A stretch of 64,000 nt of DNA from NCBI GenBank assembly GCA_945643635.1, contig CALZFC010000042.1, positions 377,501-441,500 of the forward strand, in the 5' to 3' direction. This DNA is from Allodiplogaster sudhausi (lineage: Eukaryota > Nematoda > Chromadorea > Rhabditida > Diplogasteridae). Made by a program: the position numbers and the translations under genes. Positions 17,280 to 54,343 of the stretch are shown in pieces; positions within the stretch are counted from its first letter, which is position 1; every line of letters begins with the position of its first letter. Below the pieces are notes generated by a model. It saw nothing but the letters and a program-made list of their open reading frames with translations, searched no databases and was not told where the DNA came from.

Positions 17280-17809
17280 CCTTTCCTTTCCAACTGCCAC
17301 TCTCATCTTCCCTTAGTGTCTCTGTCACTCTCTCATGTGCATTCGGAAGTCGTCACTTCCACTGTCCAAATAAGAAGTATGTTCAAGGCATTTCCGCCTT
17401 CTTTTCTTTATATTTTTCCGAACGAATTGTTTTTTTTATAAATACCTCTCAGTGTTAATTCCATCTTTTATTTTCTCTTTATTTCTCTCTCGTCACTATT
17501 CTCACCCCATTCATAAAATGATGATTCTGCTGCTCAGCCATCACCCAAGAGAGGAAGAGAAAAAGAGACCGACTGGAGGGCGGAAGAAGTTGCATTCCTG
17601 CTACGTAGTCCCTTATGATGTTGTTTTCTCTCTCTCTCTCTCTCTCTCTCTATCACTCTTGTTATCTTGCTCTACCTCTCCGTCTGCCTCTCTATCACTC
17701 TTATTATATTTCTCTTCATCTTGCTCTCTCTCCCTCTTCCTTCTCTTCCAGCTATCAGTCACTTTTTCTCCACCTTTCATCTGCTCTCTTTTTCTTATTG
17801 TCCCTTTCT

Positions 17810-17856
<47 letters not shown>

Positions 17857-20800
17857 CCCTCTCTCTACCATTCTCTCTCTCTCTCTCTCTTTCTCTTTCT
17901 CTCTCCTCTCTTTTCTCCCTCTCTCTCTCTCCCTCCCACCCTCTCTCTCTCTCTTTCTTTCTCCCCTCTCTCTACCATTCTCTCTCTCTTTCTCTCTCCC
18001 CTCTCTCTACCATTCTCTCTCTCTCTCTTTCTCTTTCTCTCTCCTCTCTTTTCTCCCTCTCTCTCTCTCTCTCTCTCTCTCCCTAAATGGCTACGTATGA
18101 ATGCCTTCGCCTCTCTTCTGGCATTACTTGTACGCGACTGTCACTGTCGCCAATTGCTCCTCTCTCACCCCTCACCTTTCCTCCTTCACGCTTCCCTATC
18201 GCTATGCTGGTGCTTGGGGTCACCCCCCCCCCTCTCCCCCTTCCCGCCACCTTTCGTCATCTTTCCTCAGCTCCATATGGTGGTTTGCCACTCTCTCTCT
18301 CTCTTTCTCTCTCTCTCTATCTATCTCTCTTTCTCTCCCTCTCTTTCTTCATTTGCCTAATTCTCTCTCTCTTCTGTCCGTCTTCCTTACTCTCACTCCC
18401 TTTCTCTCTCCTTTCTCTCTGCTGATCAGAAAGGCGAAAATCGACGGCTGCCCTCGTTTGGGCTCGTCCGCATACACATATGCGGGTCATAATGCTCTCG
18501 GCCCTTTTCTTCTTTTACTTGCCGACGCCATTTTACTTTCCTCTCACTCTCTCTCTTCCTCTTTTTCTCCTTCTCTCTCCGTCTCTCTCTCTATCTCTCT
18601 TTCTCTCTTTCTCCCTTTCTCCTTCTCTCCCTTCTCCTCTCTCTAATTCAAGACAGTTCCAAACTCGCAGCGGGTTCCTTCCCGTTCTTGAAAGTAGTCA
18701 ATGTTGATAATAGTGAAGAATGAATCTCCCTCTTTCTCTCACTTTCCATATTTCTCTCTTTTTCTTTTTTTTCCATCTCTCCATCCTTCTGTTTCTTTCT
18801 CTCTCTCTCTCGCTCTCGTTCTTTCTCTCTCTCTCGCTCTCTCCCTCTTCTCCGTCCTTCCCGTTGTTTCTCTTCTGCCATTGATCACGTGTCTGAGATA
18901 GAATTCGTTGCTTCCTTCTTCTCGCTCTGCATAGTGGCCGAGCGAAATCATTCTTGCTTTTTTTTAACCCTCACATTCTAGATCACGCTCCATCAACCGT
19001 CCGTGGCGCGAGACTTTTTCCTCTCTTTGCTGCGAGCTCTCCCTTTTAGTCCCTCTATCTCTTTTCCTCCCTCGACAATCCCTTTCACTTTCTGTATCAC
19101 TGTCTATGTCTCTCTCACTACCATACTCTATGCCACTCTTTCTAGCTCCTTCTCCCTCTCTCTCTTACTCTCTCTCTCTCTCTCTCACTCTCTCAGTCTC
19201 CCCTTCCTTCCAACAATTCTCTTCTCATTCTCTCCTCTTCGCTTATCTGGCCACTAGTCAGAATAGTGCGTTGCTATCGCCCGAAGCGATTTGGCCGATC
19301 GCATTCAACTCCTCCATTCTCTCTTCATTTCTTCCTCTTCTTCTTCTCCCCCTCCCCCTCTCTATTCTTCCCTTCATCTCTCTCTCGTTCTCTCTCTCTC
19401 TCTATCTCTCTCTCTCTTTCTTTTCCACTCCCTTTCTCTCTTTTTCTCCCTCTCTATTTCTCTATCTCTCTCCCCCTCTCTTCCCCTCTCCCCCAGTTAC
19501 CGTCCTCCTTCCCGGTTGGTTGGATTCGACCGCTAGTTGTACATTCCGTTCATTCCATTTGTGTTGTGCTCAATTTGCAAGCCTCTAAAGTTCTATCTAA
19601 TCAGACTGCGGTCCCATCGTTCAGTTCAATGCAATTCAATATGGTTGTATGCCAAAAAAGTTATTATTATAATTAAGATCTGTGAGAAGCAGCCACGTTA
19701 TTTACATCTGTATCCTTGTGTATATGTATATGTATGTATGTACATAAACTCATCTCACAAAGTATATTAGATTTGCCAGCTTCGTTTCATTTTCTGCGAC
19801 CACTAATTGTTGTTATTTCTTAAAATAGCCGTGTTCGTTAATTGTAAGATGATAGCGTGTGAACAAAAATAGAGAAGGATGTGCGTGTAAAGAGGAAATG
19901 ATTCTATCCTGTTTTGCTTCCTTTTCCGATCACCGGAAACTCGGCCGGTATCTGATGTCGACCGATTCGCCCTTGCCTCTTCTTCTTCTCAATGGATCTG
20001 ACTTCGTTCTGCGAGTTTGTCTCTTTTATCTTTCCTTTTTTAACACTTTTCCAGACGTTTTTGTTTTCCTTTTTTTATATGATTTCTATTTATCTCCTCC
20101 ATGTTCCACTCTTCCTCACTCTCCTTCATCTCATCTTTCTCTCCCACTATACATCTCGTTCGAAATCGCTCTTTCACCTGTTTCACTCTCTCTCTCTCTG
20201 TCTCTCTTTATCTCTCGCTTCTCTCTCCCCCTCTCTCTCTCTCGTTCCCATTGGGCAAACTCGGACCGACTTCAGCAACAATTCAATCACACCACAACTT
20301 TTCACGGCGAGGCCTCCTCAAAAGTGGGCGAACTAGCGTGACGCGTATGTAGCTGATGTTCTGATGGTTTTTAGAGGACTTCTTGTCTAGAGAGAGCTTT
20401 AAATCGCGGTCGGACGCCGAATTTTTCTATTATGAATTACTCATTGTCCGGGAGCATGTTTGACATTTTTAGTAAGTTATTTATACCCATTACCTTATCG
20501 CTACGAAGCCATTTGTTCGAGTTCAAATCGACAATTCTCCTAGCGCGAAAGCGAGCAGACTGTGGTGAGCAAAGAGAGATATGCTGGTTGGATGAGAGAG
20601 CGAGAGAGTTAAAGAGAGAGAAGAGCTTAAGTATGGCCGTCTGGACCCTCCCTGAGGGGTGCGCTCTCTCCGCCCGCTTCATGCTCTTCCTTCTCTCGCC
20701 GTCTGCGCGCTCTCTCTTTACTCTGTCTCTCTAATGTGTTCTCTGCTCCCGCTCATCGTCTGGCTTCTCTCGCTTGGCCACACTCTCTCCTTGCAGCCAG

Positions 20801-21042
20801 CCCATCGGCTGGTTGTGCAAGAGCTAGCAGAGCTGCCGCTCTCCTTCCCTTTCTCGCTCCGTCTCTCCGGCTGACCCTCACCCTATACCTCGCCCTTTCT
20901 CACTCTGTTTCTCTCAGTCTCTCTCTATATCTCTCGTTCTCTCTCTCCCTCTCTCTCTCTCCTTGCGCACGTAGCCCATGCCACAGACACACTTCACGGA
21001 CTGACTGCACTCTTTTCCACTTGCTCTCTCCCTCTCTCCTTC

Positions 21043-21088
<46 letters not shown>

Positions 21089-21825
21089 TCACAAAGACAC
21101 ACTTACCGAGAGAGCACACACACATTTCTACCTCCTCGCTCGCCCGCTCTGCCCGCCGGCTGCTTATTCTAGCCTCCAGCTTCCCTCCCTTTCCGATCTG
21201 CGCTCTCTCTCGTCAGCGATCCCCCGGAGGCAGCTTCTCCCTTCCCTTGCTGATGACGCTGGTATTCACGCGCCACGCGCACACCATTCTCACGTCATTC
21301 TTTTGCTGGCTATTTCTGGCCCTCTCTCTCTCTCTGTCTCTCCCTCTCCCATGCTCTCTCTCTCTCCTCTCTCCTCGTGCTTCATCCTATTCATGTCGCA
21401 ACCGTTGAATTAGACGTGTATACATGCATACGCATAGATTCTGTTGCAAACATGAAAGGAAGTCGCTCTCGCAGCCTCGCCGTCTCTTTATTCTCTTCTC
21501 TCTCGTTCATTTCGAAACAATAAAAAGCTTATCATTCACGAGGCGCGCTTATTTCATCATATCTTGTTATCATCTTGTGCCTTAGGCAGTTTCCTACGAT
21601 GTGACGCCCACTTGCAATTGGCTACATTTTCGCGCACTATATATGCACTTATATTGATGCTTTTCTTTTAGTGGCTATGCTGAAAGTTCGTTCTATTATC
21701 TTCCTTCCGAGAACATGCCTAGCTTTATTATTCTTTGATCCAAAAAGTTTTTTTTAAAGGTTTTTTTGGAGTTCAAAAATCACTTTTGAATTCGCGCGCT
21801 TTCCCTGATGCTTGTTTAATTTTAG
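16117..21825. repeat. 5.7 kb of polypyrimidine repeat, no gene seen
   Basis: Dominated by CT-rich sequence: about 16300-16375, 17155-17280, 17620-18090, 18290-18620, 18750-18850, 19130-19490, 20180-20245, 20890-20965 and 21040-21086. In 17855-18080 the phrase CTCTCTACCATTCTCTCTCT recurs three times, so there is higher-order tandem structure. Long plus-strand open frames here (up to 302 codons, almost all S and L) are translated microsatellite. The 16117-16800 part is probably 3' UTR and flank of the proteoglycan-like gene. The 20900-21825 part may hold promoter and 5' exons of the MLK gene, which I could not place. Confidence 0.75.
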
Positions 21826-24800
21826 CGCGGCCGTTCTTCAACGACCACAGAAGAGTCGCCTCTTCCGTCTCCGCCTCCGCCGCCTCTCCATCTGAACCGC
21901 AGCTGCGAGATTCTGTGCTGGGACGAGCCGGCGGCCAGCTTCTCCTCTTCCTCGGCCGCCGCGACTCCCAAGACGGCCGCCCAGCTGGACGCCGTCTTCC
22001 CGGCCGCCGCCGCCATGCACACTCCGAGCCATCAGCGAACGTTCGATTCTTTTTTGTTATTCTGATTTTAAGATTGTTTAGATGCAGTCATACATGATAT
22101 GTACATACATATCTGGTGTTGTCACATGATTATTTTGATGAATAAATACCAAGTAAATATTATTGTGATCATGCATACAAATTTACGCGACGAAGCCGTG
22201 GTTTTCGATTAATTTTTTTAATATAGAAATAGATCTTTCTCTGCAGCAGCAGCATGGGTGGCCGCGTCGAATATGTAAATCTGCTGCCAACGATTGCCCC
22301 GCCGCAGTCGCTCGCGCCCGCGCCGTCCACCGCTAATGGTTCGTATTTCTTTTTTTTATTTCGTCACTTTTATTTTCCTCTTTTAATGCTTCTTTTGTTG
22401 CTAATAAGCACTCTATTGACTGTTTATTTTTTTCATACGATTGATTATTGAGAGTTAATAAACGGAAAAAATGTCTCCTTTGCAGACTCGTCTCTACCGC
22501 CGTCTCGGCCAACTCGCCTCTCCTCCATCGACGAGCCTCTCCCCTTTCAGTCCTCCGATCTCGCGGCCGGCTCCACTGTCACCACTCCAACAGGTGCGTT
22601 CTTCCGTGCTTCTGACCTCAATCGCATAGGAAAAGCTGTCCCGGTCATAGCATTCTTCTTCTTCTTCTTTTCTTTTATCTCTCTTTATACATTCAAAATC
22701 CTCAGGCGAATTCGGATGATCACTGATCACTTGACACGTGGTATAGCTAACGAGTTTATTTTGCTGATTGTAGAGAGAGAGGGAGAGAGAGATGGAGAGA
22801 GAGAGACGGCGAGAGCAAAGAAGAAGCTCTTTCCCTTTCAGCGATTGCTGGAGTTCGCTTCCGTCCGGACGAGGACAATCTCTACGAGGTCGCCTACGAC
22901 TACCGGGCGAGTAACACCGACGAACTCGACGTCCGCAGGGGCTCCGTCGTGCGCCAGCTTTCCAAAACGTACGAGTTTAACACCCTGTATTTCACTTTGT
23001 TGGGTTTTTTTTTACTTTTTTGATAATGAGATGTCCGTTATCTTCGCTAAACTGTTATAGTTCACATTGTACACACTTGCAAAAGTATCTATCACTTTTA
23101 CACTCTTGCTTTGAAGCGCAGAGCCCGGCTGGGTTCGCGGTGAAGTGGATGGCAAGCTTGGCTATCTGCCTTCCAACTACGTCCGCTGCATCGGCCCGCA
23201 GCGACAGCAACAGTGCCATTCACATGAGATTTCGGTTCCTTGCTTTTTATATTGATTATTATTCTTTTTTTAATTAGACATTATTGTCCACTTGTTTATA
23301 TTCTGTTAGTTGAGTCTTTCTCCTTTTATGTATTTTTCATTTTATTTTCTTTTCACTTAGAAAATATTTTCTAGCTTTCTTAATAATAAAATAGGTTATA
23401 CTTGAGCGCGTGAGCGAAATTGGCGAAGGCATGTCCGCTAAGGTCTATACTGCGTGGTATAAACAAATGGTAAGTCTTTCTTCTCGCATTCGTTCTCTCA
23501 GTCCCACGTACTCTTTCAATTATCATTCCGTCTCTCTTTCTCCCTCTCACCCTCCCCCTCCCTCTTCCTCTCTTTCACTCTTTCACACTCTTACTGTATC
23601 TCCCCTTTTTCGCTTTCTCTTTTTCTCTCTCTCTCCCACTCCATTTCATGCGTGTCCCACATGTTAGAGTACGACTTCTTGAAGCATCTGCTGCAGACTT
23701 CGTGTGATCCCTTGAAAAAGTAGCTAGGAACTTCTTTTCTTACCATTAGTTTTTCCACGATTCCTATTGAAAGAATAGTTGTTATATGACATAAACTAAC
23801 TTTAGAAAGTCGCGTACAAGCAGCCAAAGATGACGTTGCGTGAGGGAAAGAGCAAGGACTTTAAGACAGTTCGTACAGGTGTGAACAGTTCTCGTGTCTT
23901 TATCAGTTGTCGTTATCATTATAGATTTTTATATCCGTAAGGACATATAAAATGCACTCTATGTCTTGCAGAAATCATCCGCGAAGCTGCCTACGTCACC
24001 AATCTCGGCCAGCACCGCAACATTGTCGGCCTACACGCGATTTGTCTGGAAGAGCCCAACTTTGGCCTCCTCCTCGAACTCTGCCAAGGCGAGCATCTTT
24101 CTTCTTACTAATTTAATAAAATTAATAAACTACAATTCATATTATTTCCGGCCCTGATATATTTTTGCTTACATTGGTAAATATAAAAAGGTTTTTCTTT
24201 TCGATATTACAGGAACACGGAAATCATCCGTAGTCTATTTGAATTTCCTGACTCTCACTTGTGTAAGGCAAAAGGCCGTGAATTAATAATTGAGTATCTA
24301 GCTCCTTTTAAGCTAACGAATAAGAAAATAGTGTTTAAGAGAAAAAAGAAGATTTAAAGAATGGACGAAGAAGTTCCTTGTTCGCCAGGCGGCAGCCTGA
24401 GTCACGTGTACAAGAAAGTGGAGCACGCGGCCGTCCCGAAGAGGATCCTCGTCGACTGGGCCGTGCAGATCGCTGAGGCCATGTGCGTCATCTGCGCCAA
24501 GAATCTCATTCATCGCGACCTCAAGATGGACAACGGTCGGTTCCCCCTCGTAATCTCTCTGTTTCTCTGTTGCTCTCTATCTCTCGTCTTTCTCTCTTCT
24601 TTCTCTCTCCATCACTCTCTCTATTTTGCTTTCTCTCTGTCGTTCTGTCTCCTTCTCTCCCCTTCTCTCTCTCTTTTTCCAAATTTATCTTTAACCTTTG
24701 AGATCTCGCTTCTTCAATATATGTAAATAATAGACCATCTTTTATCGAAACGAATGTTACTCTTTCTTGCAGTCCTGATCCTGGAGAGTGTCTGCTTCTG

Positions 24801-25955: not shown

Positions 25956-28900
25956 TATTCATGCTCCATAATCGTCACTGATTATGCTGAGAGAAAACGA
26001 GTTCTCATTAAAAAAAAGTATAAAAAAGTGAAAGATACACATGTACAAACCTTGTAATATGCATGGAAACACTCGCCGCAGCTTGTCAAAGTTGTGAGCA
26101 ATTCAAATGCAATAACAACGACGACGGCGGCGCGACGCATTTCTCTGACTTTTCCACGTTTTGTGGTGGCGAGTGGAGGAGATGCGTTTTGGCTGCTGCT
26201 TCGTACCTCGAATGTTACTAGATGGTCTTTCTCTCTCCCCTCTCTCTCCACTCTCTCTCACTCTCTCTATCACTCTCCCTCTCTCTCCACTCTCTCTCAC
26301 TCTCTCTATCACTCTCCCTCTCTCTCCACTCTCTCTCACTCTCTCTATCACTCTCCCTCTCTCTCCACTCTTTCTCTCTCTCTCTCTTCTGCTACTCTCT
26401 GTTTTCTCTCTCTAGACCTCTTTCGCTCCCTCAATCTATTGGCAGATGTAGTAAGCAAAGAGTGTGTGTACGAGGGCGCTCCCATTTACTCTTTTGCGTT
26501 TGCTCTGCTTCCATCTGCTTTCTCTCTTTCTCCTTATCTCTTTATCTCTCTGCCTCACTCGCCTTTATCCCTGTTTATCTTCTCTCCCTCTATGACGCAC
26601 CAACACTCTCTCTTCTCTCTCTCGTACTGTCTACCAGTGCGACATGAGTCTCCTCATTGTTTATATGCTCGAAGATCGCGAGACGCCATATGCTTGCTGA
26701 GTAAAGAAAATCAGCTGCGCTTTAGAAATCTAAAAATAATCCACTCTTTCATGCTTTTCATACTCATAGAAATTTTTCTGTGGGATTTTATACATTGAAA
26801 TGTATCACGCATGTTTATGCATAAAAAATATTTGAGTCCAAGATGAGTTGTATAAAGTATGTGCATTGTACGATCCGTACTTTGTTATGTGCTGACATCA
26901 ACATCATAATTTAATTTTGTTATAAGTATTTATTTATTCGTTTATTTCAGTCGCATTTTATTATACCTCAAATTTTATGGCATTAAAAAGAAATTTAAAA
27001 AAATAATGAGAAATAGAATAAAGCGTATATTTGAAGGCTGACGGCGTCTGCAGGAAATGCAAAGGCAAGGCATTCGATCGACTCACTCTCAAACTCTCCG
27101 ACTTTGGCCTCACGAGAGATGCCAATGAGTTCGTTCCTTGTTCTCCTCCGTTACTACATTCTATTTTGGCATTACTCTTTACTCTCAACGAAGTAAACAA
27201 CAATGGCATCGCCTATCAATCTTCAAAATCTCACATTTTGGCAGATGGAGCTAATGAATTCATCAGGAAATTATTTATCCGATGTAATAATTTCAGGTCC
27301 TCTGAGCCAGGCTCCGTGTCGCTTGAGCCGCAGCCAAAGGGACCGGGGAAGAACACGGCGGGCACGTCGCTGTACCTCGCTCCCGAGTGCTTTGTAGATC
27401 ATACCTTCTCGGAGAAGTCGGACGTCTGGGCATTCGGCATCACTCTGTGGGAGTTGTGGACAAGGAAGCGGCCGTACGAGGGAGACACCGAGGACGAGCG
27501 GAGCATTCCTTTCAAAGTGGTCAGTCTCGCACTTTTTGCCGATGTCTTTCTGAATATTGCTAATCTTTCTAGTCGTCTCTCTCCAAATCATATGTTTGTT
27601 CCCTTTCTTTTGGTCAGGCATTTTGGTCAGGCAAAAGGTTCGAATTCAAGAGTGTTTTTTGGTTCCTTTAAACTCGATATTTGAGACTGTACAAATGGAA
27701 GATTAGATAAGGCATTATGTCTCATTGATTTCATGTATAAGAGCGAAAATCATTGATTATATAAAATGAAGCATAGTAAGTGCTAAATTGCAGGCATTCT
27801 TCAATGTCCGCCTGCCCATCTCAAAGGAGTTTCCGCAGGCCATTGCTCATCTCTTGCGCAGGCTCGTAAACCTCTGGTCTTTCAATCCTATTTGCCTACG
27901 TTGCAACAGTGGTAGTTGAATTATATATGGAGTGACCTATCCTATGGGAAATTTTATTGGCTTATGGTTTGTAACGGTAAGAAGACTTGTAGTTTCAGCA
28001 AATTGTTCGGAATATAGCTTCAGCATAACTTTATGCATTTAATTCTTTTAGATGTTGGGAGAAGGAGCCGGATCAGCGGCCGACTTTCCAGCAAATTGCT
28101 GAAGAACTCACAGCCTACCACCACGAAATATCTTCTGTCAATGACGTGGTCAGCATTCTTATTATTAAGAGAAAAGCAGTTATGGCTCTGATAAAGCAGA
28201 CCAAATTCTTCTAACATTCCTATTATAATGTACGCAAATCTTTAGTTTTCTCTGGCGGAGCAAAAGGCACTGGAGAAGCAGATCAGCGAGGATCTCGAAA
28301 AGCTGAGGTATCGCTATCTTTTAGTAGATCAGTTTATATCGTCATTTATTGATTACTTTTAAACATGTAACAAAACTTCTAAGAAATGTTTCTTTACATG
28401 ATGTACTTTAAAGTATTAAACTACGAATGAAGAAGAAGTATTCAGGGGTGACTTCTTAGCTCGCCGAGACAAGGACGACGAGCTCTACCGGCAGTTCAAG
28501 AAATTCATAAGTACACACGAAATACTAAGTATATTTCTCAAATTTCTTTCTGCAAGTCAAAAACAACTATATCAATTGCTTTCAACGAATAATAATCGTA
28601 GGCATGCTTCCGAAAGCGGAAGCGCCCGCCGTGAGGCCGAGGAAAAAAGTTGTGGACAAGAACAACATTGGCGCTCCCAGCGGTAAGATCCCTTCAAAAT
28701 CATTCATTATTGGTTTTGCCAAGAAATCCCCCATGATAATTAATAGTTATTCCTAATAATTAAAATAAATTTTTATGCTGAGCGGATATGACATATTATT
28801 TAAAATGCACCTTTGTGATTATAAATAAATGTACACAACTATGTTCTACACGTAAACTCGTGAATATAATATCTCGGTGTGCACAGCAGTACAATTCATT

Positions 28901-40960: not shown

Positions 40961-40964
40961 TTAA

Positions 40965-41983
40965 GAGAGCCTCTCTGTAAGGATCAAGCAGCCCTCCATG
41001 GGGGCCTGCCCCGGGGTAAAAATTTTTGATTTGGCTATCCAAAATTTTATCAGGGGTACCTATGCGCACTATGAAGAAAATTAGAAGGTCAATTTTGTTA
41101 TAAAAATTTTTTTGTGGCCTGGGCATGCAAATGTATGGAAAAAGTTTAAGTCCCCATAACTTTCTTTAACATCAATATTTTTCAATTTTCTTTTTTTTAG
41201 CGGAATCAACGTTGGATTCTGAACAAACACAGCCCAGGTGTCTCAGTCAACTATTTCATTTTCACATCGAAAAATTACTTTTAATATTTGAATTTGACGG
41301 CAAAGTACCTTATACTCATTTGTGTGTGGGTGTTATATCTCAAAATGTAGAGCATTAAAAACTGTATAACATATATTCTTTTCGCTTCGCGTACACTACC
41401 CCTAAGGGGTGGAAAATAGGTTCAAATATTGGTGCCTCGGATATTTAGGATTCAAGGAATGCGTGAAAAGAAGTTAAATTCTTGTTGTAACATAAAATGA
41501 ACCATTTCATTCGATTCAGCACGTGCTTCTTTTCAAAAAAGCTTTACATTAAAGTTTCATAAAATTATCATCTTCCATGAAAAAAACCCATTTTTCGATT
41601 TTTCAGCCATTGTCCGAAAATGACCTAAAACTATTCGAATCGCTGTAGTTTCAATTCTTTCAGCGAGAACAGAATGCGGATAGTACTATTCAGTACGCGA
41701 CAAAATTCTATACAACATATATCCATTACATCTGGATATGACGTCCCTACGAATTACAGTATCGATTTTCCAAAGGCCGTCGCGCCCAAACTGACAGAAC
41801 CGCATTTGGTAACTTTTCTTGAAATTTTAATGTTTCTTACTCATCCAATATATCATTCTGCTCCATTCAGCATACTGAATTCAGAACAGATGTTTATTTT
41901 GCAGATTTCCCGAGTTTGATTTCATCAATTCTGAATGTTGCACTTTTTTGGTTCCTTTTCGTATCTGTAAAATGTACGAAAAA
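40965..41983. repeat. Left terminal inverted repeat of the transposon
   Basis: About 1.02 kb, inverted against 47414-48419. It includes the 81-codon frame 41674-41919, which is identical in the right repeat. Its inner end overlaps the last exon of the EGF-transmembrane gene. Confidence 0.85.
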
Positions 41984-42227
41984 TGATGATGGCGACAACG
42001 GCGAAAATGACGCAAAGACTGGCAGATACTCCGTGGTCGTCGACTGAAAGAAAAAAATAAGTGGAATGTAATGCCTAACAAATGCGTATAATTAGTAAAA
42101 AAAACTGTTCTGCTTACCAGGTGTGCACATCACTCCAGAAAAGCCATCCGCGCACACGCAGGTGAACTCAAACCTCGTGACTTCCATACATGTCGTGTTA
42201 GGGGGGCAGTCGCACATTTTGTGAACA
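41925..42227 (-). CDS. EGF-like single-pass membrane protein, two 3' exons inside the transposon
   Basis: Minus-strand exons 42227-42118 and 42043-41925 join in phase 1 and end in TGA. The first encodes an EGF-like module: CDCPPNTTCMEV, then FTCVCADGFSGVMC. The second encodes a short linker, the transmembrane segment ASLCVIFAVVAIIIF and a basic cytosolic tail (RTFYRYEKEPKKCNIQN). The layout is EGF, membrane span, short tail. The exon enters in phase 2, so upstream coding exons should exist, but none is seen between here and the transposase stop at 42643, and both nearby transposase donors are phase 0. The last exon crosses the inner boundary of the left terminal repeat. It may be a captured host fragment or a second element gene. 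Confidence 0.55.
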
Positions 42228-42320
42228 CTAAATAAACTCTGAACGTGTACAATAACCAAGATAAGATAGCTTTCATTACAATGAAATCAATTGAATGATG
42301 ACAAACATCACGTATAAATT

Positions 42321-42391
42321 ACAGTACTTTTGTGTTCGGATTGTCAGACAGTATTCTCTTACAGTACTTTTGTGTTCGGTTTGTCAGACAC
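42321..42391. repeat. Two copies of a 30-bp direct repeat
   Basis: ACAGTACTTTTGTGTTCGG plus (A/T)TTGTCAGACA at 42321-42350 and 42361-42390, 40 bp apart, one mismatch. It lies in the non-coding gap between the transposase stop and the EGF exons. Confidence 0.85.
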
Positions 42392-42642
42392 TGTGCCAAA
42401 TAGGTATATGATCTTGCAAAGTGGTGCCGAATATATTGTTAAGTCCTCATATATTCAATGAATTTATCATTATTCTTAAAAGTAGTTCTAACCACACTTT
42501 CCAATACATTTTTTAGAAATTCGAACGCATATAATATTGAAATAGAAATCCAGTAACAGCAATCAGTTATTTTTAGCCATACAATTTTAAGCAGACAAAT
42601 TGCGAACTAAAAAAGTTTGATTATTGCAGATCGGAAGCTTTG

Positions 42643-45600
42643 TTATCGTAATTCATCTTTAAAATGTGTTCCTTCGGTTGTTTCCGATGGGTTCTCCACA
42701 TCTTCAGCTAATTCGGTTTGGGCATGCGCAATTACCCTGTGATCAGCAGTGATGTCAAACTGCGGGTCAGTTTCAAATTCTTCCTCTTCGTCTCCTTCTT
42801 GCGTGAACAGGTCCTGGAGCACCGCATCTGTTTCCTCAGATTCAGTCGGAATTGGTGGGTTCTATAAGAGATATTTTTGTTCTCTGCATCCAGCGATTAT
42901 TCTTCCTAACTTTCTTTTGTTGCTGAGCGAGGCGTGAGAAGATGGAAGCTATTTGGCGATAATTTAGAAGCTCATGTGGTGCGAATAACAGCTTGTCTTG
43001 GCTGTCCACTGCGTTTCGCATACGTTGCTCTGCGGCGCGAGGGTCAGTTTTTACTTTAGTACGCCACCCTTCTTCGAAGATATTCTTGATAAATTCCTTG
43101 GAGCGTTCGGGAAGTCGCTCCCCTTTCTTGCGGTCACGAAGTGCCCATCCTTCCTTAGTTTTCTTTCCGCTTTCAGTAGTTTCCTAAAGCAAAGGATATA
43201 TATACATTATATATAAATATATACATATATATATAATTATAAATGTGTTGAGAACAGCGTTTTCCGTGTTCTTCTCACCATCAGCGAAACTTTGAGTTAT
43301 CAAACCTGCAGTGATGCAACTGCGGCCTGCACCTCAGGGTAGAAACGCTTCTCCTGAACACCTTCTAGTGCACAGGTATAATACTGTAAGGAAATGTCAC
43401 GTAAAGTGAAGCGCTCCGGGATGTAGTTATGCTTGCCAATGAGAAGGTGTCTCGCAAGTTGGTGCGAGCTGAGAAATTCAGACATGCATGCCTCTTCGGG
43501 ACACCGAAACAGATATGTCTCAAGCGCGCATGTGTCGGAGTCTTCGGCTGCACAATCGCCTTTAGTCGAATCAAGCGGTGGGTCACAGGTTGTGCTTTCT
43601 TCTGAGCGCATGCGCTTTCCAGGTGTCGACCAGAAATCGACCATGTGGCTGAGTTTGCCTCCGCTCCTCCGGGTGCTTGAAAACACGACATTCGAAGTCA
43701 TTGTGGAATATGGAACAACTTTTCCAGAGCCGATGCGAGAGTGCCTGTAGGCGCGTACTCCTTCTTTTTCAAACACAAACGTATTGAGGGTTGAAATCCC
43801 GGGGATTTTCGTTGTCGAAGCTTTGGCATTTGTCAGGGTTCTGACGTAAACAGATAGTCCCGACAGTTGCTTACTGCCATGAAGAACAGCTTGAAAAAAT
43901 TCGTCTGCATTTTTGACGTCATGTCCAGAGTCCACGTAATCGTGAACTTTACGTTTCACGACTGCAGCGAAGCGATCGCAAGCCGACTTCCCTGCCTGAG
44001 CCTCACTGAAGAAGTACGAAGCGATCTCCACGTTAGTTCTTGCTGAGACGTCATGCAGACTGGCGATCGTAGCGCTACTTTTGTAACATCCTGGCAAAGA
44101 AAAAGTGATAAAATAATAGCATTTCTAATAATACGATCATTACGTACATGAAGAATATATTATCACATACCGGCATTATCGGACCTAAGATGAACTTTCT
44201 TAATTCCAACACGAGATAGTTCAAGGAGGGCATGAGCGATATTTGAAGTAACGGCAGTTGTGTCCTGAAGATAGGCACCTTGACTGTACTATCATAAGAA
44301 GTAATATGAAAAACGTACCTGAAGATCTCCTTCCATAATGTGAACGAAAGTATGCTGAGTCAGTTCGCCATTAATTCTGGCAAGAACGTGACTAATATGC
44401 CAAGAAATTCCACGCTTGGCGTAATAATCCGTAGTCTTCTCACGTGCGAAGAGGGGAAGCAGTTTCATCGCCCAATCGAGCGTAATCAGAGCTTCGCCGT
44501 TCCCCAAGTTTGAGACTAGGGAATCACGGTCGTGTTCACTTGCGATGGCGCGAAGCTGATGCTTTTTGAGATTTTCTATGGCTTCCTCTATTCTATGCCA
44601 GTCTGCGAGTTTCCGATCCAATTTTTTCCGGCGTTCTGTTCTTGGAGATGCAGCCGAAATCAGAGCCGCGATGGTTTCGCGAATATCACCCAACGTAATC
44701 TGAAGTTTGTACTCTGTGTCTTGGAAAAAATTTTCTCCTAACCTTCAATAGCTCACATCGGTCACAAATAAGGTTGTGCATATGTTCGTCTTCATCCTCT
44801 GCTCCATCACAAGGGTTTGCATACTCAGGAGTCTGGGGATCGCTCAATCCGTGCTGGATGCAGTGGTCCCCTATTCTTGATTTTCGCTTGATGTGGACTT
44901 TGTAGTCTGTTCTTAGATATTGCTTTACTTCCAAGATCTTGATCCTGAGCGATCCGAACCAGTATTCGTCGATATCGCCATCAGCCTTTAAGCTTTCAAG
45001 CAATGCAAGAGCATCATCGAAGGCCTGAGAATAAATTGATAATTTTTGTGTGTAAATAATTAATAACCGACTTCCATTGCTTCGGCCACAAAGAAATCTA
45101 CTCCATGGAGACTCTTTCGGGTAGATGCTGTACAAGCAGACAGAATTCGATAATGAGTTGCTGGTGACATCATCAAATAAACCTCGTCAGTTTCTTCAAG
45201 ATCTCTGAATAAAGTATAAAATTTTCAACGGCAGATGTTATTGCAAGGAATAATAACGTTTACCGCTTATAGAGCTCAATTATCTCTGTTGCGCTATGTT
45301 GTCGGAGAACATTTGGATATTCAATCAGACTTCCATCCGAGAGCTTCGAGGATCGTGTTCCGAACGGAAGGCTAGTCGAAATTTTGAAGCTGAAAAGTCC
45401 AATTATGTTTAACTCGTAAAATATATTTCAAACCCGGTCACAAACCTGGTAATAAATTCGACGAAGCGATTCACTTGCTCATGTGTATACCTCTTTCGTT
45501 TTAGATCCTTGGAGATTTCCTTTCCTCCGCGATATGCGAGACGCTTTGATTTTGTATAGAAATACTCTGATAAGCCAGGTATATAACGCTGCACTTCAGC

Positions 45601-46935
45601 CAGGCCCAGAAGTGGTGTGACCAGTGAGAGCAGATGAAGCTTTTCAACTCGGGAATCCGCATTGAGAAACCGGGACCTTATGGACTTCATCAGGGCATCG
45701 TATTTGTCAGTTCTCTCTCGCTCGTAGAGCTCCTCCAGGTCTGGGGAAACTATCATTTTCTTAAGCATTTCGGGAGAATCGGGAGCTACTATCTCATATA
45801 CCACTTCGAAAGCACTCCGCAAGTACTGCGCTTTTCTCCTCTGGGACCTTTCCGCAAGATCTCGGAAATCCATGCGCCGTATTATCTTCCCTTGCCCGAT
45901 TGCTTTAAGGAAGGCGTTGAATGTCTGCTTTGCAGATTCCGAGGCTGTTGATACAGTGCGTTTCATCGGTGGTCCTTCATGGCGCGGCATGTACGACGTA
46001 TCGTCTTCTTGAGAGCATGTGGGATACTCTTGAACGTTTTCAGTGATAACGTCGGGCGTTTTAGAGAAACGACGCTCGAGTAGAGGAGGGTCGAATGAGT
46101 GCCCTGATTCTTGCACTTTTTTCTGCGTCCTGTCTCTTTCGAGCTCTTCTTTATGAGACGGACATACAGCTGAAATGATAGCTATTATTCTTCGCCTATT
46201 TAGGCACGAAAGAACTAACGCAATCCGATATGAAGTAGGACATGATCCATTGCTAAGGCTGCTCTAGCTTCATTTTTCTCAACAACTGTGCTTCCCGATA
46301 CCACTGGAGGAGAAGGACGACCGTCGGCTGATTCATGTTGTGAATACGGTGGAGGCAGCGAGCACAACTTCTTTGTCGTCCCCTTCTTACGCTTGAAATG
46401 GTAGAATTGGTTAGCGTACCAATCAGTTCCGAGTTCCTTTATATGTTTGTCACATATGTATCTCTCGCCAACTGAACCAATCTGAAGAAAACGTAACCGA
46501 ATTAATTAGCTATTACGTTTATATAAATTTACTTCAGCTTCGTTTTCGTAATTATAGTCGAATTCTCCAGCGCCTCTCGCTAATATCATATCAAGAAGAT
46601 TAGTTGTTCCAAGAGAGTTGGTTGCTTCTTGGTCAATCAATTCACGCATTCTAAAAAAATAATAAATGAAAAGCCTTTCACAAATCCCACTCTAACTTTC
46701 TCTTTGCGCCTTGGCAGTTGGTGCTCACTCGAGACACGGCAGGACGCTCGTATGTCTCCTCAGTTGTCTTGCGGAGGACGGAGAAATAACAACGCACGTC
46801 TTCTTCGACTGACAGCGACGGAATCTTCACATCATCATGAGGTGGAAGAACGTCATCCCCTCCACGTTTGCTCCGGTGTAAGGGATATGCGTGAAATTCG
46901 AAGAGGAACAGCAGAAAAAGAAGAAGTAAGCGCAT
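42643..46935 (-). CDS. DDE-like transposase with C2H2 zinc finger, 1,216 residues
   Basis: Twelve minus-strand exons: 46935-46682, 46650-46533, 46481-46220, 46169-45446, 45389-45264, 45204-45072, 45024-44743, 44699-44319, 44264-44171, 44090-43306, 43183-42911, 42861-42643. One open frame, no stop or frameshift. Candidate acidic catalytic residues: D708 (LDWAMKLLP), D789 (RSDNAGCYKS) and E821 (SEAQAGKSACD), spaced 81 and 32. A C2H2 finger follows (CPEEACMSEF through HLLIGKH, C-x4-C-x12-H-x5-H) near residue 1000. The C-terminal part contains GWALRDRKKGERLPERSKEF and LNYRQIASIFSRLA. I recall uncharacterised proteins in cnidarians, molluscs and fish with DWAMKFLP, DNAGCY and GWAL motifs; that is memory, not a search. 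The start ATG is a choice, as its first 16 residues look like a signal peptide. Confidence 0.8.
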
Positions 46936-47413
46936 TCAGTCTAAATGGAGACAAATATATGTACATACATACATATGTATGAAAATGCGAGAAATGTATT
47001 TATAGTGAAAGAAAAAAGAAGGCAAAGAACAGTTCACTATTCTCTGAACAGTGTTGAAGGCATGATTATAAGTTTGATTGCTGTGAATAAGAAGATGCCA
47101 AAATTGCTATATATACTGCCCAATTAATCTTCGGCACAGCACTTCAGTCTCTCACTTAGTTCGCTCGTTGTTAGGCACCGCCTCACCTTCAATTGCTCGT
47201 AGTAATTATTGTACTAGACACAATTTATTCTCTTTGGCAATGCCTTGCTCATAATGGCTCTAATTGAAGTGTGACTAGGGTATCGCACTTCATTCATCTC
47301 TAAGATATGTCTGTCTAGCCACCCGACACTTGCTAAACAGACCATGAAAAAACGTACCAGAACTTACATACATATAACTACTAACGAAAACTGGCGGATC
47401 TGTTTCATTGCCT
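46936..47413. other. 5' flank of the transposase gene inside the element
   Basis: AT-rich, non-coding; it should hold the promoter of the minus-strand transposase gene. No distinct motif identified. Confidence 0.4.
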
Positions 47414-48419
47414 TTTTCGTACATTTTAAAGATACGAAAAGGAACCAAAAAAGTGCAACATTCAGAATTGATGAAATCAAACTCGGGAAATCTGCAAAAT
47501 AAACATCTGTTCTGAATTCAGTATGCTGAATGGAGCAGAATGATATATTGGATGAGTAAGAAACATTAAAATTTCAAGAAAAGTTACCAAATGCGGTTCT
47601 GTCAGTTTGGGCGCGACGGCCTTTGGAAAATCGATACTGTAATTCGTAGGGACGTCATATCCAGATGTAATGGATATATGTTGTATAGAATTTTGTCGCG
47701 TACTGAATAGTACTATCCGCATTCTGTTCTCGCTGAAATAATTGAAACTACAGCGATTCGAATAGTTTTAGGTCATTTTCGGAGAATGGCTGAAAAATCG
47801 AAAAATGGGTTTTTTTCATGGAAGATGATAATTTTATGAAACTTTAATGTAAAGCTTTTTTGAAAAGAAGCACGTGCTGAATCGAATGAAATGGTTCATT
47901 TTATGTTACAACAAGAATTTAACTTCTTTTCACGCATTCCTTGAATCCTACATATCCGAGGCACCCATATTTGAACCTATTTTCCACCCCTTAGGGGTAG
48001 TGTACGCGAAGCGAAAAGAATATATGTTATACAGTTTTTAATGCTCTACATTTTGAGATATAACACCCACACACAAATGAGTATAAGGTACTTTGCCGTC
48101 AAATTCAAATATTAAAAGTAATTTTTCGATGTGAAAATGAAATAGTTGACTGAGACACCTATGCTGTTTTTGTTCAGAATCCAACGTTGATTCCGCTAAA
48201 AAAAAGAAAATTGAAAAATATTGAGTTTGAAGAAAGATACATCAATTCAGAAATTATCCATACTTTTACCTGTTCACGGAAAAATATTTTTTGAAAAAAC
48301 TTTTTTGCCATTTAATATTGTTACTGATGCCCAGTGCCATGCCCGACTATGTTTTCACATTCGAAATCCAACGTCTGGATCTGGGGCACGCCCTACTGGA
48401 GGCATACAGAGACGCTCTC
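47414..48419. repeat. Right terminal inverted repeat of the transposon
   Basis: Inverted copy of 40965-41983. The inner 760 bp are near-identical; the outer 200 bp (48210-48410) are only loosely similar to their left counterpart. Confidence 0.85.
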
Positions 48420-48423
48420 TTAA

Positions 48424-49196: not shown

Positions 49197-51706
49197 ACTC
49201 TCTCTCGTTTTCTCTCAATCCTCAAACGAAGGACACTTTAATGGCAATCGCATGTGCCTTTTGGCCCCTCTGGCAACGGCGGCTGCTCATTTCCACCGCT
49301 CGCTTCTCTCTCAACATCATGTTTTGCCGATGTATATTTACCATTACTCGATAGGGCCGCACCCTGGTTTCAGCAGCCGCATAAAGCTATAATACTCTGA
49401 ACATTGACTTGACACTGTCTATCTCAAATAGGTTGTAAGTAAATTAATGTCAAAAGGTTGTTTTCAAGTGCTTTGGCCCTAAATACAAATGGATAAGAAA
49501 AGCAAGGCCGCCGTGCTTGCTTTCGAGACTTCTCGAAAAAATTTCCGCCGGGAGCAGCAACTGGGCCTTTTTCCTCTCTCTTTTCGTAATCCGGGTCATC
49601 CATCATGAGCAATCGAGGCGACTTTCTGTATGCTTCACTGGCTCACATCATCTCGGGTAAATCTCTTCTTTCCACTTCCTTTGCATTTCTTTATCTCTCT
49701 CTCATTCTCATTCTCTCTCTCTGTCTCTCTGTCTCTCTGTCTCTCTCTTCCATATCGTTCTCCTTCACCCACCCCGTCATAACATTTACTCTCCGCCTCC
49801 TACGGAAAGTTTTTGAAGGGTCGAAAGATAAGCGATTAACTCCGCCGGATTTACGCTGAGTTGCTGGCCAGCCAGAGAAATTTGGAGCAGGCCTATAGAA
49901 ATTCTGTTAGAAGCCTAAAATATTAATACCGGCCAGATCGGACTATCCATAAGTGTGCGAGAACTATCCATAAGAGCTCTCTAAAAATACGTAAAAAATA
50001 CTTTAACTGTGAGCCATGTACAATTTTTGCGAATCCTTTTTACTGATGCCTCAGAATGCTTTCGGCCTTATTACACATGGCAATATCTCTGAAAGCCAGC
50101 CGCCTCTCTGCCCTCTTCTCCATTTTTGCCATGCCTGGCGTGACATTGTGTCCTTGTCTTCTCCTCCTCCTTCATACCAAAGAGGAAGAGTGCCTGAGGC
50201 ATGTCCCCCCCCCCCACCCTCGCCCCGTCAGGGCATTATGCTGATTGTGCGCTTCGGCCATCTATTTCTTGCTCTCATTCCCCTTCACTCTCTATCTTCT
50301 CTCTATCTCCTTTTTATCATTTTCTCTTTTTCCTCTCCATTTCTTCCACTATCTTTCTCCTTCTGTTTATTTCGCTCTCTCACAACGTACTCTACATTAT
50401 TCAGCCCTCTTTATTTCTCTTACCCTTTCATCTCTCAGGATTGGTTCAATCTCTTCCATTTTATCATTCTCTCTCTCTCCCTTCTCTCCCTCTCTGCCTT
50501 GTCTCGTTTTCCTCTTCTCCAGTACTCTGAAAGAGAGGCAACTGTGAACTTGGCGGAACCGGCGAAGACAGTGGAGAAACGATGGAAAGAGAGAACGAGA
50601 GAGGGAGAAAAGTGGAGTCAGAAACTGAGAAAGGGAGATACGGAAAGAAAGAGAGAGAGAGAGAGAGAGAGAGTAAGAGATGGAGACAGGGAGCGAAGAG
50701 AGATAAGAGCCAGAGATAAAAGAATCGTGGAGACGCAGAGTGTGAGAGCGGTCGGAGTCAGTTGTTAGCTGTTCATTGTTGCGTGCTGATGCTCTGATGT
50801 CGCTGTGATGGGACCTAGGCGGAGAGGCCGAGTGGCTCTCATGATGCCAGAATTGGTTATACGGACTGGGGCTCATCGAATTGGGAGAGAGAAAAAGAGA
50901 AAGATGGAGAGAGAGAAAGAGCGAGAGAGAAAGAGAGAGAAAGAGAGAAAGATGGAGAGAGAGATAGAGCGAGAGAGATTGAGAGAGAGAAAGAGCGGGA
51001 GAGATGGAGAGAGAGAGGGAGAAAGAGAGATGGAGTTCATGAGATAAAGAGAACGCGAATCTAAGAAATAGCGAGAAGTCAATTGTTCTGCTACAAATCC
51101 AGTCATCTTGTTTTGTCATCCAGAGGTGGCCTGGAACGAGCCATCTCGAGTCAATTGGCTCTTCATCACATCTTTGGCAGCCTTCCCACATTTGGAAAAT
51201 CTAGCGTACTTCTGGACGCACTGGACAAATGCAATTTTTTTTTGTTCTACATTTTGGAATGTCTTTGAGTAGCCGCTGCCTTTTTTTGAATCGCTTCACC
51301 CTCTCTTTTACAGCTTTATTTCCCATTTCTCTCTCATCCATTCTCTCTATAACACATGCTGTCTCTCTATCTCTTGCTCTGGCCCTCTCTCTGTCTGTGT
51401 CTCTGGCTCTCTCTCTCTCTCTCTCTCGCTCTCTCTCTCTCTGTGTTTCTGGCTCTCTCTCTCTCTCTCTCTCTCTCTGTGTCTCTGGCTCTCTCTCTCC
51501 ATTTGAGCGCTTCCACCTTGGAATAATCCTTCTCGTCATTCGCTGGCACAAAAAGGGTTTCAGGCGTGCCGTGCCTTCTGTTGTTTCTTGACTGGCCTAA
51601 AATGTATTAGATATGAGCCGCGTGAGACTGAAAGAAAGGTCAGCGCAAAAGGGCCTATGATTTCACTCTTCAAGCGCACCTCCTTCTAACTCATTGTCAG
51701 CTTCTC

Positions 51707-51755
<49 letters not shown>

Positions 51756-53101
51756 TCATTTCCCTTTTCTTATCTCTCACGCTCTCTGCTCTCTAACTTG
51801 CTCCTTGCATATTCACTCTAAAGCTTCATTGCCTCTTCACTATCTTACCTGAATGCACAACAGCCGGCACTCTGTCTCCGCATACCTTGCCTAAATCCTT
51901 TTCAATCTCTCTTTCACTCCATCTTTCTCTCTGCCCGTCTCTCCTTCTCCTTCTCCTTTTATCTCCTTCTCAATCTTGTATTTCACAATAAACGGAAGAA
52001 TTATTTTTGGCCGGTAGATAATGACCACTTAGCTCATTCCTTTACCTGTTCTGATTGCTCTCTTCTTTCTTTCTCTCTCCCTCTCTCGTTGTCTCTCTCT
52101 CTCTTTATCCAATATCTTTCTCTCTTGTCCTGTCTCAATATCTTCTTCTTTTCACAACGTTTATTGCCTACGTATTGTTTTTACTTATGCGCTTCGATAC
52201 CCTTTCCATCTACACAGCTTTTTTGATAAGTTTAAAGGCGCTTTCAGTGTTTCCTTCGACTAACTAAATCCAGATGTAGCTTGTTTTTCCCTTTATTCGC
52301 CAACTCATGAGCCTGAAGTTTTGCCCAAAATATACAATTACTGCTTCGTATCCGTTCTGTGATTATCCGATTTGATTTTTTTTTTATAAATAACAATTTT
52401 ATTCAATTGCTTTCTATAGTCAACATTTGCAAGTTACTTCCTTTGAGATTTTTCACTGGTAATTGTCTGGATTTCATGACGAAAAAGAAGTTGCAATCTA
52501 CACTACCGTATGTTTAAATGTTTGATCTTCTATCATTCTTGCCGTGAAAGAGCAGAGAAGTATTCATTGTTAGCAGCCCTCACATCGCCTTTCAAGTTAC
52601 CGTTCTTTTACCCCTCTCACTTTCTGTCTCAGTTTTCTCTCCTTCTTTCTCTCTCTCTCTCTTTCTCTTTCTCTCTCTCCCTTTCTCTAGCCTTCTCTTG
52701 CTCTCATTTCCGCTCAAACTATTTATTACAAGGATGCGGCATACCACAACTATAACTCTTAGCTGCTCACTTGCTTCTTTCGCTCTCTCTCACTCGCTTT
52801 CTCTCTCACTTTCAATCATTCTGTCACTGTCAATCTCTCTCTCTCTCTCCCGCTCTCTCCCTCTCTCTCTCCCGCTCTCTCTCTCTCTCTCTCTCTCTTC
52901 CTGCCTCGGCTGACCCTGTCACTTCCTTCTCGCTGTAAGGCGCAGATCGCGCGCGTCTCACCTCTCCCCTCTTCCGGTGGTCTCCTCTTTTTGCCCTCCG
53001 GCACGCGGAACAAAGAAGCCAAGAAGGCGAGGAGTTTGTGAATTGGCAGGCAAATGCTTTTCTCGCTCTCTCTCTCTCACTCTTTTTCTCTCTTACACTG
53101 T

Positions 53102-53145
<44 letters not shown>

Positions 53146-53416
53146 TTCTCTCTTCTTGGAATTGACGCTGTTCCTCTTTGTGTTTTCTTCTGCCGCCCCA
53201 TTCGCTGCCCTCTGTTTACTTGTTCTGAACACCAGGCGATATCTTACCTTTTTCATTTTATTTTGCATTCTTTGATACAAATTATGCCTGCATCTTTCTT
53301 TATATCCTTTCTTTTTTCAAACATATATTTCTCTCTTTATCTCTTTCTCCTTTGCTTGCTCTCTCTCGCTCACTCTTTCTCTCACTCTCTCTCCCTCTTC
53401 CTTTTCTCTCTTTCCC

Positions 53417-53454
<38 letters not shown>

Positions 53455-54343
53455 ACCATCTCGCTCACTCCCCCCCCAACTGATCATCTTCTCTTCGTTT
53501 CCATCGTCTTCTCTTGAGTGTTCACCTGAGCATGATATCGATGCGACAACAGCGTATGCCTTGGGGAAGACTAGTAATAGGAGGGCGTCTTGATACTCTT
53601 GGAAAAGCAGGCGAAGAGAACCAGCCAATTTATATAGATCAACAGGTGCTTTCTTCAGGCTGCATCGCTAGTAATTAGAGCTTGTTATAGCTCTCGCATT
53701 ATATCATATCACCCGGTCTTCGCCTATTCATTCGAAGCTCTCTCTCTCTCTCTATTTCTATCAAGCTCTCTAATATTCTCTCAACACAGCAAGTCATAAT
53801 GTGACTGAATATAAGAAACACCACCACCGCTGCTGCTTCGACGTGTTAGCGGTAATAGAATATCGCCGCAGGCTCGAGAAAGGCAGAACCAGTTAGAAAA
53901 GCTGATTGTAAGCTCTTTTAGAAAGCGGTGAGTCTCGAAAATTTATACACTTCTATATATGAAAAGTGCAACCAATCTACTTTAGAAATTGAGTTACTTC
54001 TCGCATATTTATTCCATCTTTTCTTATATAGAGTTCATTTTTTACAGCTCTACTCAAGAGATCGGTTGTCACGGGGCTTGCAAACTTATTTCTCGGGGAG
54101 CGGTAACTTTATCCCTGACATTGTTGATGTGTGTTGATGAGAAAGCTCGTTTTTGACAGGTCGCCGAGTCGGGTAGTTATTTACTATTTGGAGGAGAAAT
54201 TGTTTATTCAATTCTAACGGCAAGAAAATTCGTTTTTAACACTTGGACGCCTGAGGTCTCATTGTCAGACTTTTGCTCAGAGCTACGGCAGGTCGTTTAT
54301 CTTCCTGGAACAGGTGTTCTCCGACTATCTTTGAACTCACTCT

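What the first reader, a model, noticed from the sequence alone, without database searches (positions are those of the whole stretch)
40961..48423. Complete, apparently intact TTAA-flanked DNA transposon with 1-kb inverted repeats and an intron-rich transposase
Seen: inverted repeats of about 1 kb at both ends, TTAA directly outside each, and a 12-exon frame of 1,216 residues with no stop. Three acidic candidates (D708, D789, E821) and a C2H2 finger suit a DDE transposase. Known: TTAA targets occur in piggyBac and Kolobok, but the motifs here (LDWAMKLLP, RSDNAGCY, GWALRDRKK) match neither as I know them. Inference: this is an autonomous element whose protein belongs to a widespread but unnamed family, and the TTAA and repeats would supply the missing evidence that the family is mobile. 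An open frame and near-identical inner repeats suggest recent activity.
Basis: partly seen in the sequence, partly recalled or inferred. Interest (0 to 1): 0.85.

Follow-up and report, generated by a model that had tools for sequence, protein, structure and literature searches.

The report
TTAA transposon carrying EGF-like membrane gene
This is a recently active cut-and-paste jumping gene, probably in a nematode genome, whose transposase family occurs in many animals and which, unexpectedly, often carries a second gene for a tiny EGF-like membrane protein and has inverted repeats that appear to copy each other.

Summary
A 7,463-bp element with TTAA at both ends lies at 40961-48423 and encodes a 12-exon, 1,211-residue transposase. 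The same genome holds many copies. Of 20 others fetched, 20 begin and 19 end at the same TTAA, in different flanks. Of 11 near-full-length copies compared (this one included), eight keep the 1,211-codon frame and a ninth has an in-frame 3-base loss.

(2) The element carries a second gene, an EGF-like single-span membrane protein, conserved across subfamilies and beside transposase exon 8 at 25 of 40 places. Ten of the 20 copies lack its EGF exon, so movement does not need it in cis.

Empty sites could not be tested. From recall the family may be Sola3; not testable here.

The parts
40961..40964 (.). left TTAA
   Evidence: TTAA also at the left end of 20 of 20 other copies fetched
48420..48423 (.). 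right TTAA
   Evidence: TTAA also at the right end of 19 of 20 other copies fetched; L011 has lost its right end
40965..41156 (+). left outer end, L-type, with the tip GAGAGCCTCTCTGTA
   Evidence: L-type ends 91-96% alike among window, L030 and L032; L versus R 55-61%
48240..48419 (-). right outer end, R-type
   Evidence: R-type ends 97% alike among window, L030/L034 and L032/L035
41157..41983 (+). left inner inverted-repeat arm
   Evidence: 98.5% to the right arm over 827 bp; concerted evolution
47413..48239 (-). right inner inverted-repeat arm
46697..46935 (-). transposase exon 1, with signal-peptide-like leader and CYFS motif
46533..46650 (-). transposase exon 2
46220..46481 (-). transposase exon 3
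45446..46169 (-). transposase exon 4
45264..45389 (-). transposase exon 5
45072..45204 (-). transposase exon 6
44743..45024 (-). transposase exon 7; conserved C/H cluster H588 C589 C606 H615 H617 C621 C624
44319..44699 (-). transposase exon 8, with D703 (first acid)
44171..44264 (-). transposase exon 9, with D784 (second acid, RSDNAG)
43306..44090 (-). transposase exon 10, with D825 (third acid) and the C2H2 finger
42911..43183 (-). transposase exon 11 (GWALRDRKK)
42643..42861 (-). transposase exon 12 and stop
42118..42217 (-). second gene, exon A: start and whole EGF-like domain (MCDCPPNTTCMEVTRFEFTCVCADGFSGVMCTP)
   Evidence: pN 0.076, pS 0.439 against L040
41925..42043 (-). second gene, exon B: transmembrane helix and stop; the part below 41983 lies in the inverted-repeat arm

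Best explanation
It is an intact autonomous cut-and-paste DNA transposon of a TTAA-bordered superfamily whose transposase has a DDD catalytic triad in an RNase H core (D703, D784, D825). Most likely the transposase binds the distinct left and right outer ends, cuts at the TTAA borders and joins the element to a new TTAA. Gaps left behind are repaired from a template, and repair that switches between the facing 0.8-kb inner arms produces internal deletions, extended inverted repeats and the arm-to-arm homogenisation. The lineage also carries a conserved passenger gene for a small single-span membrane protein with an N-terminal EGF-like domain, which the element does not need in cis for its own movement. 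Shown by computation: dispersed copies with fixed TTAA ends, near-identical copies, open frames, a predicted RNase H fold, an invariant triad, concerted arms, and the linked conserved EGF gene. Inferred: cut-and-paste chemistry, TTAA duplication on insertion, repair by template switching, and membrane placement of the EGF protein.
Against: No empty site was seen, because the search did not complete; an element that carries its own TTAA ends and makes no duplication would look alike. No expression or transposition data. Plain Foldseek gave no match at E<=1e-3; its top rows were short-Argonaute (SPARTA) and Argonaute chains, among them NurA, E 2.3e-3 at best. The models are of relatives, not of the window protein. 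Of four older copies read on the left, L029 lacks TTAA; of the three read on the right, L029 has ATAA. The pairing of left and right arms in a tree is strong for L032 (support 0.99) but weaker for L030 (0.84) and L029 (0.75), and L029's left arm is as close to L030's arms (97.05%, 97.09%) as to its own right arm (96.87%). Ten of 20 copies lack the EGF exon, and in the window subfamily the end of its TM exon is repeat-arm sequence.
Confidence: 0.88

Rival explanations
1. The element is a member of the Sola3 group already held in Repbase: TTAA target, DDD transposase, long transposon. Only the EGF gene and the behaviour of the arms would then be new.
For: Recalled, from no call: Sola encodes DDD transposases with 4-bp target duplications, and Sola3 uses TTAA. 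Sola3 elements are counted among molluscan transposons (PMC10294476, passages), and this family occurs in Mytilus, Saccostrea and Patella.
Against: No Sola3 sequence could be compared. The founding paper is not held, and Pfam gave no hit for the window protein.
Confidence: 0.6
2. It is a new transposon superfamily that nobody has named.
For: In Pfam the only family hit by as many as 5 of 28 relatives is zf-C2H2; Phage_TAC_4 (3 members) and Rad33 (2) look like chance. Named relatives are called hypothetical, unnamed, uncharacterized or C2H2-type proteins. The strings DNAGCYH and SDNAGCY are in no held paper.
Against: Pfam and open papers are poor guides to Repbase content; a widespread animal transposase is unlikely to have escaped Repbase.
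Confidence: 0.3
3. The EGF-like reading frame is not a working gene of the transposon but a decaying captured host fragment.
For: Ten of 20 young copies lack exon A: seven share one loss of about 184 bases, and L013, L014 and L026 have larger rearrangements. Three of the seven have the transposase frame open (the other four were not tested). In the window subfamily the TM exon ends in repeat-arm sequence. No relative was found in the protein database, at limited sensitivity.
Against: Kept in diverged subfamilies with pN/pS 0.17 (window-L040), 0.34 (window-L038) and 0.23 (L038-L040); for window-L040 9 synonymous changes on 20.5 sites against 6 replacement changes on 78.5, Fisher p 0.0004 on rounded counts, while the intron visibly diverged. 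A further subfamily holds it at 61% protein identity, in the opposite orientation to the transposase, near a TTAA end of the same type.
Confidence: 0.35
4. The inner arms are alike because they were duplicated recently, not because they exchange sequence.
For: 98.5% identity in the window copy; within the young group left arms are closest to left arms of other copies.
Against: Older short copies have the same arms, left and right 97% alike, although they differ from the window's arms by 8-10%; L032, L030 and L029 each pair left with right in the tree (support 0.99, 0.84, 0.75).
Confidence: 0.1

Closest known systems
Sola3 DNA transposons (recalled; Bao and co-workers 2009, not held)
   Same: TTAA-type 4-bp target, DDD transposase, animal hosts (all recalled)
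   Different: No sequence comparison was possible; no EGF-like gene is recalled for Sola
Kolobok (PMC9587614, abstract and passages seen)
   Same: TTAA, termini 5'-RR and YY-3' (here GA and TC)
   Different: C/DxxH signature between second and third acid absent in 29 of 29 rows; third acid is D, 35-40 residues from the second, which leaves little room for the Kolobok zinc finger (inference)
KolobokP composite-like elements (same paper)
   Same: long terminal repeats with their own short inverted ends and an extra gene beside the transposase
   Different: its terminal repeats are direct and its extra gene is a His-Me nuclease; here the arms are inverted and the extra gene is an EGF-like membrane protein
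piggyBac
   Same: TTAA target
   Different: no Pfam piggyBac hit in the window protein or in 28 relatives
Retroviral integrase and Mos1 catalytic cores
   Same: RNase H fold, acids in the same order and places
   Different: fold-level likeness only, 8-18% identity

Membership tests
DDE/D cut-and-paste DNA transposon | terminal inverted repeats at fixed ends in dispersed copies | tested here: met
DDE/D cut-and-paste DNA transposon | RNase H fold with three acids | tested here: met
   predicted models of two relatives; triad 29 of 29
DDE/D cut-and-paste DNA transposon | target-site duplication shown by empty sites | tested here: inconclusive
   TTAA on both sides; empty-site search not answered
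Kolobok | TTAA flanks | tested here: met
Kolobok | 5'-RR ... YY-3' termini | tested here: met
   GA...TC; rule from PMC9587614, passage
Kolobok | C/DxxH between second and third acid | tested here: not met
   0 of 29 rows
piggyBac | TTAA flanks | tested here: met
piggyBac | piggyBac transposase domain | tested here: not met
   no Pfam hit at E<=1 in the window protein and no piggyBac family at E<=0.1 in 28 relatives
Sola3 | TTAA 4-bp target (recalled) | tested here: inconclusive
   TTAA on both sides; duplication not shown
Sola3 | DDD triad (recalled) | tested here: met
Sola3 | sequence similarity to Sola transposases | not testable with these tools
   no Repbase/Dfam; founding paper not held

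The most novel reading that the evidence does not exclude
A cut-and-paste DNA transposon lineage keeps, under purifying selection and over several subfamilies, a gene for a small N-terminal EGF-like, single-span membrane protein that may act on host cells, for instance as a Notch- or EGF-type signal in the germ line, and so raises the element's transmission. The signal-peptide-like leader of its nematode transposases may be part of the same membrane link.
Probability: 0.3. Interest if true: 0.85.

Novelty: new variant of a known kind. Interest (0 to 1): 0.62.

Why it matters
It supplies genomic evidence that an animal protein family annotated only as hypothetical or 'C2H2-type' is the transposase of a mobile, recently active element, and it proposes its catalytic triad. 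DNA transposons with a conserved cell-surface-type gene are, as far as I recall, not described, and one search of the held papers for nematode, DNA transposon, EGF-like and transposase together found none. If the gene acts on the host cell, a class II element would have a tool for manipulating its host beyond moving itself. The arms give a natural case of inverted repeats that exchange sequence inside while the outer ends stay distinct.

Tried and rejected
Kolobok and piggyBac as homes: rejected on signature and domain. The EGF exons as alternative 3' exons of the transposase: unlikely, because the frame upstream of their ATG is not kept between L040 and the window (lengths differ by 11 nt) and in the C4:3472482 subfamily the gene lies in the opposite orientation. 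My early idea that the inner arms are the 3' end of a captured host gene: rejected, because in four older copies the similarity to the left arm stops at element base 946-952, short of the EGF frame. Viral and prokaryotic contigs: 25 and 27 stretches matched a pattern, none confirmed as a relative. Second protein search with the profile: 16 proteins, nematodes and one coral. EGF protein in the protein database: no candidate shared three 5-residue words, which is not proof of absence. PDB sequence search with the profile: the best rows are C2H2 fingers; 60 of 62 rows were shown. Papers: no held paper has the motif strings or the four terms. PHROGs, NCBIfam, PADLOC, Rfam and the viral structure library were not run. 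Of the 19 places at 93-95% only four were read, and only their left 2.5 kb plus three right ends.
Full report
What is there. At 40961-48423 lies an element bounded by TTAA on both sides. Its 19-base tips match at 18 of 19. Twelve minus-strand exons, all with GT-AG introns of 43-122 bp, give an open frame of 1,211 codons.

Other copies. A search with the first 539 bases returned 40 scored places out of 1,757 candidates: 21 at 98-100% identity including the window, and 19 at 93-95%. I fetched the 20 other places of the first group with flanks. Twenty of 20 start with TTAAGAGAGC and 19 of 20 end at GCTCTCTTAA, each in different surroundings; L015 was off by my own end estimate, with its TTAA nine bases inside the printed edge, and L011 has lost its right end. 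Eleven near-full-length copies were compared, window included. Seven (window, L009, L012, L015, L017, L021, L027) are 99.7-99.9% identical; L019, L022 and L024 form a second group, 99.9% or more within and 99.0-99.2% to the first; L013 has a rearranged left interior. The other ten of the 20 are shorter, truncated or rearranged and were not put through the frame test. Eight of the 11 have the full 1,211-codon frame and all splice sites, L012 has an in-frame 3-base loss, L009 has a frameshift and L027 a stop at codon 127. Exon 8 alone was found at 40 scored places of 66 candidates, from 100% down to 94%. So the family is multi-copy, mobile and was active very recently. Counts are lower bounds, as the tool says.

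Two-tier ends. Read in 50-column windows, the arms match 33 of 39 at the tip, 25 of 49, 26 of 50 and 28 of 50 next, then 47-50 of 50. Four of the 19 older places were read in part. Three are short copies with a left and a right arm (L029, L030, L032); L030/L034 and L032/L035 measure 2,864 and 2,801 bp between TTAA ends. L031 showed no right arm in the 2.7 kb read. The outer 190 bases come in an L type (91-96% alike among window, L030 and L032) and an R type (97%), and L and R are only 55-61% alike. The inner arms behave the opposite way: within a copy left and right are 97-99% alike (96.9-97.4% in the three short copies), while arms of the autonomous copies and of the short copies are only 90-92% alike. 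In a tree the two arms of L032, L030 and L029 each pair (support 0.99, 0.84, 0.75); L029's left arm is, however, as close to L030's arms as to its own right arm, and inside the young group left arms are closest to left arms. I read this as concerted evolution of the inner arms, not of the outer ends. Rearranged copies (L010, L013, L016, L026), in which stretches of one side appear inverted on the other, fit template switching between facing arms during repair. This last step is inference.

A second gene. Between the transposase stop and the left arm, on the same strand, two exons with a 74-base intron encode MCDCPPNTTCMEVTRFEFTCVCADGFSGVMCTP plus a hydrophobic span. Pfam gives only weak EGF-type hits below cut-off (best EGF_Mua-3, E 0.0013), but six cysteines have EGF spacing. 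The same region lies in other subfamilies of the genome: C4:720162 (90%), C253:164967 (89%) and 18 places at 74-75%, with 40 of 83 candidates scored. In the six I read (L038-L043) the frame, the intron place and a longer TM exon (in L040 ...VTLFVIVAVLVIILLVFYYVYKTCKAQKRS) are kept; L039 has lost the ATG. Exon A shows pS/pN of 0.44/0.08 (window-L040), 0.15/0.05 (window-L038) and 0.49/0.11 (L038-L040); for window-L040 Fisher's p is 0.0004 on rounded counts. A protein search found 119 matches from 112 candidates. Taking 85 distinct places from that table, 25 of the 40 exon-8 places have one on the same strand within 4 kb; 15 have none, among them copies known to lack the exon. One member of a group of 28 places at 55% identity (C4:3472482) was read further: the gene lies 1.3 kb inside an end TTAAGAGAGCCTCTCTGTAAG, near transposase exons 53-80% identical to ours, in the opposite orientation; the other end of that element was not read. 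The gene is thus a passenger of this transposon lineage rather than part of the transposase transcript.

Against that gene being important: ten of the 20 fetched copies lack exon A. Seven of them (L019, L020, L022-L025, L028) share one loss of about 184 bases, and L013, L014 and L026 lost it in larger rearrangements. They have spread all the same. In the window subfamily the repeat arm has replaced the end of the TM exon, and no relative was found outside this genome, at limited sensitivity. I therefore rate a useful role for the element as possible, not shown.

A smaller oddity. The window transposase and four nematode relatives (P0002, P0005, P0010, P0038) carry a hydrophobic, signal-peptide-like stretch before the conserved CYFS motif: 5 of the 12 rows, of 39 examined, in which a C-[FYS]-F match lies in the first 480 residues; P0014 has a hydrophobic stretch farther upstream. 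P0018, P0020, P0024, P0027 and P0032, from corals, an anemone and a limpet, start close to the first cysteines instead. I have no explanation for a leader on a nuclear enzyme; gene models are of uncertain quality.

Name. From recall, Sola3 transposons have TTAA targets and DDD transposases, and this may well be Sola3. Passages of PMC4455052 and PMC10294476 only show that Sola3 exists as a group and occurs in molluscs; they give neither its target nor its sequence. Passages of PMC5199201 list Sola3 among insect MITE superfamilies. Of PMC9587614 I saw the abstract and passages. Passages of PMC8634313, PMC3627910, PMC10794571 and PMC3878927 gave nothing on the target or sequence of Sola3. All other papers were seen as search listings only.

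Noticed in passing
42118-42217 and 41925-42043, minus strand: EGF-like single-span membrane gene inside the transposon, conserved across subfamilies; its EGF exon is absent from ten of 20 fetched copies.
   Followed up: yes
46880-46935, minus strand; P0002, P0005, P0010, P0038: Signal-peptide-like hydrophobic leader at the N-terminus of nematode transposases of this family.
   Followed up: partly
P0014, residues 1-360: A relative with a long extra N-terminal part that has a glycine-rich hydrophobic stretch (VAIGSVFGGLFGWLFGTV) before the transposase; not identified.
   Followed up: no
42319-42390: A 32-bp unit repeated at 40-bp spacing in the window copy; L038-L043 of other subfamilies have one unit only.
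   Followed up: partly
L010, L013, L016, L026: Copies with extended or shuffled inverted repeats, as if repair had switched between the arms.
   Followed up: partly
window, for example 17600-18100, 20000-21400, 51200-53500: Many CT/GA simple-repeat runs in the window, outside the element, seen as S/L-rich frames.
   Followed up: no
24358-24723 and 27022-27681, plus strand: Frames reading like protein-kinase exons (IHRDLKMDN, LSDFGLT); motifs recalled, no search made.
   Followed up: no
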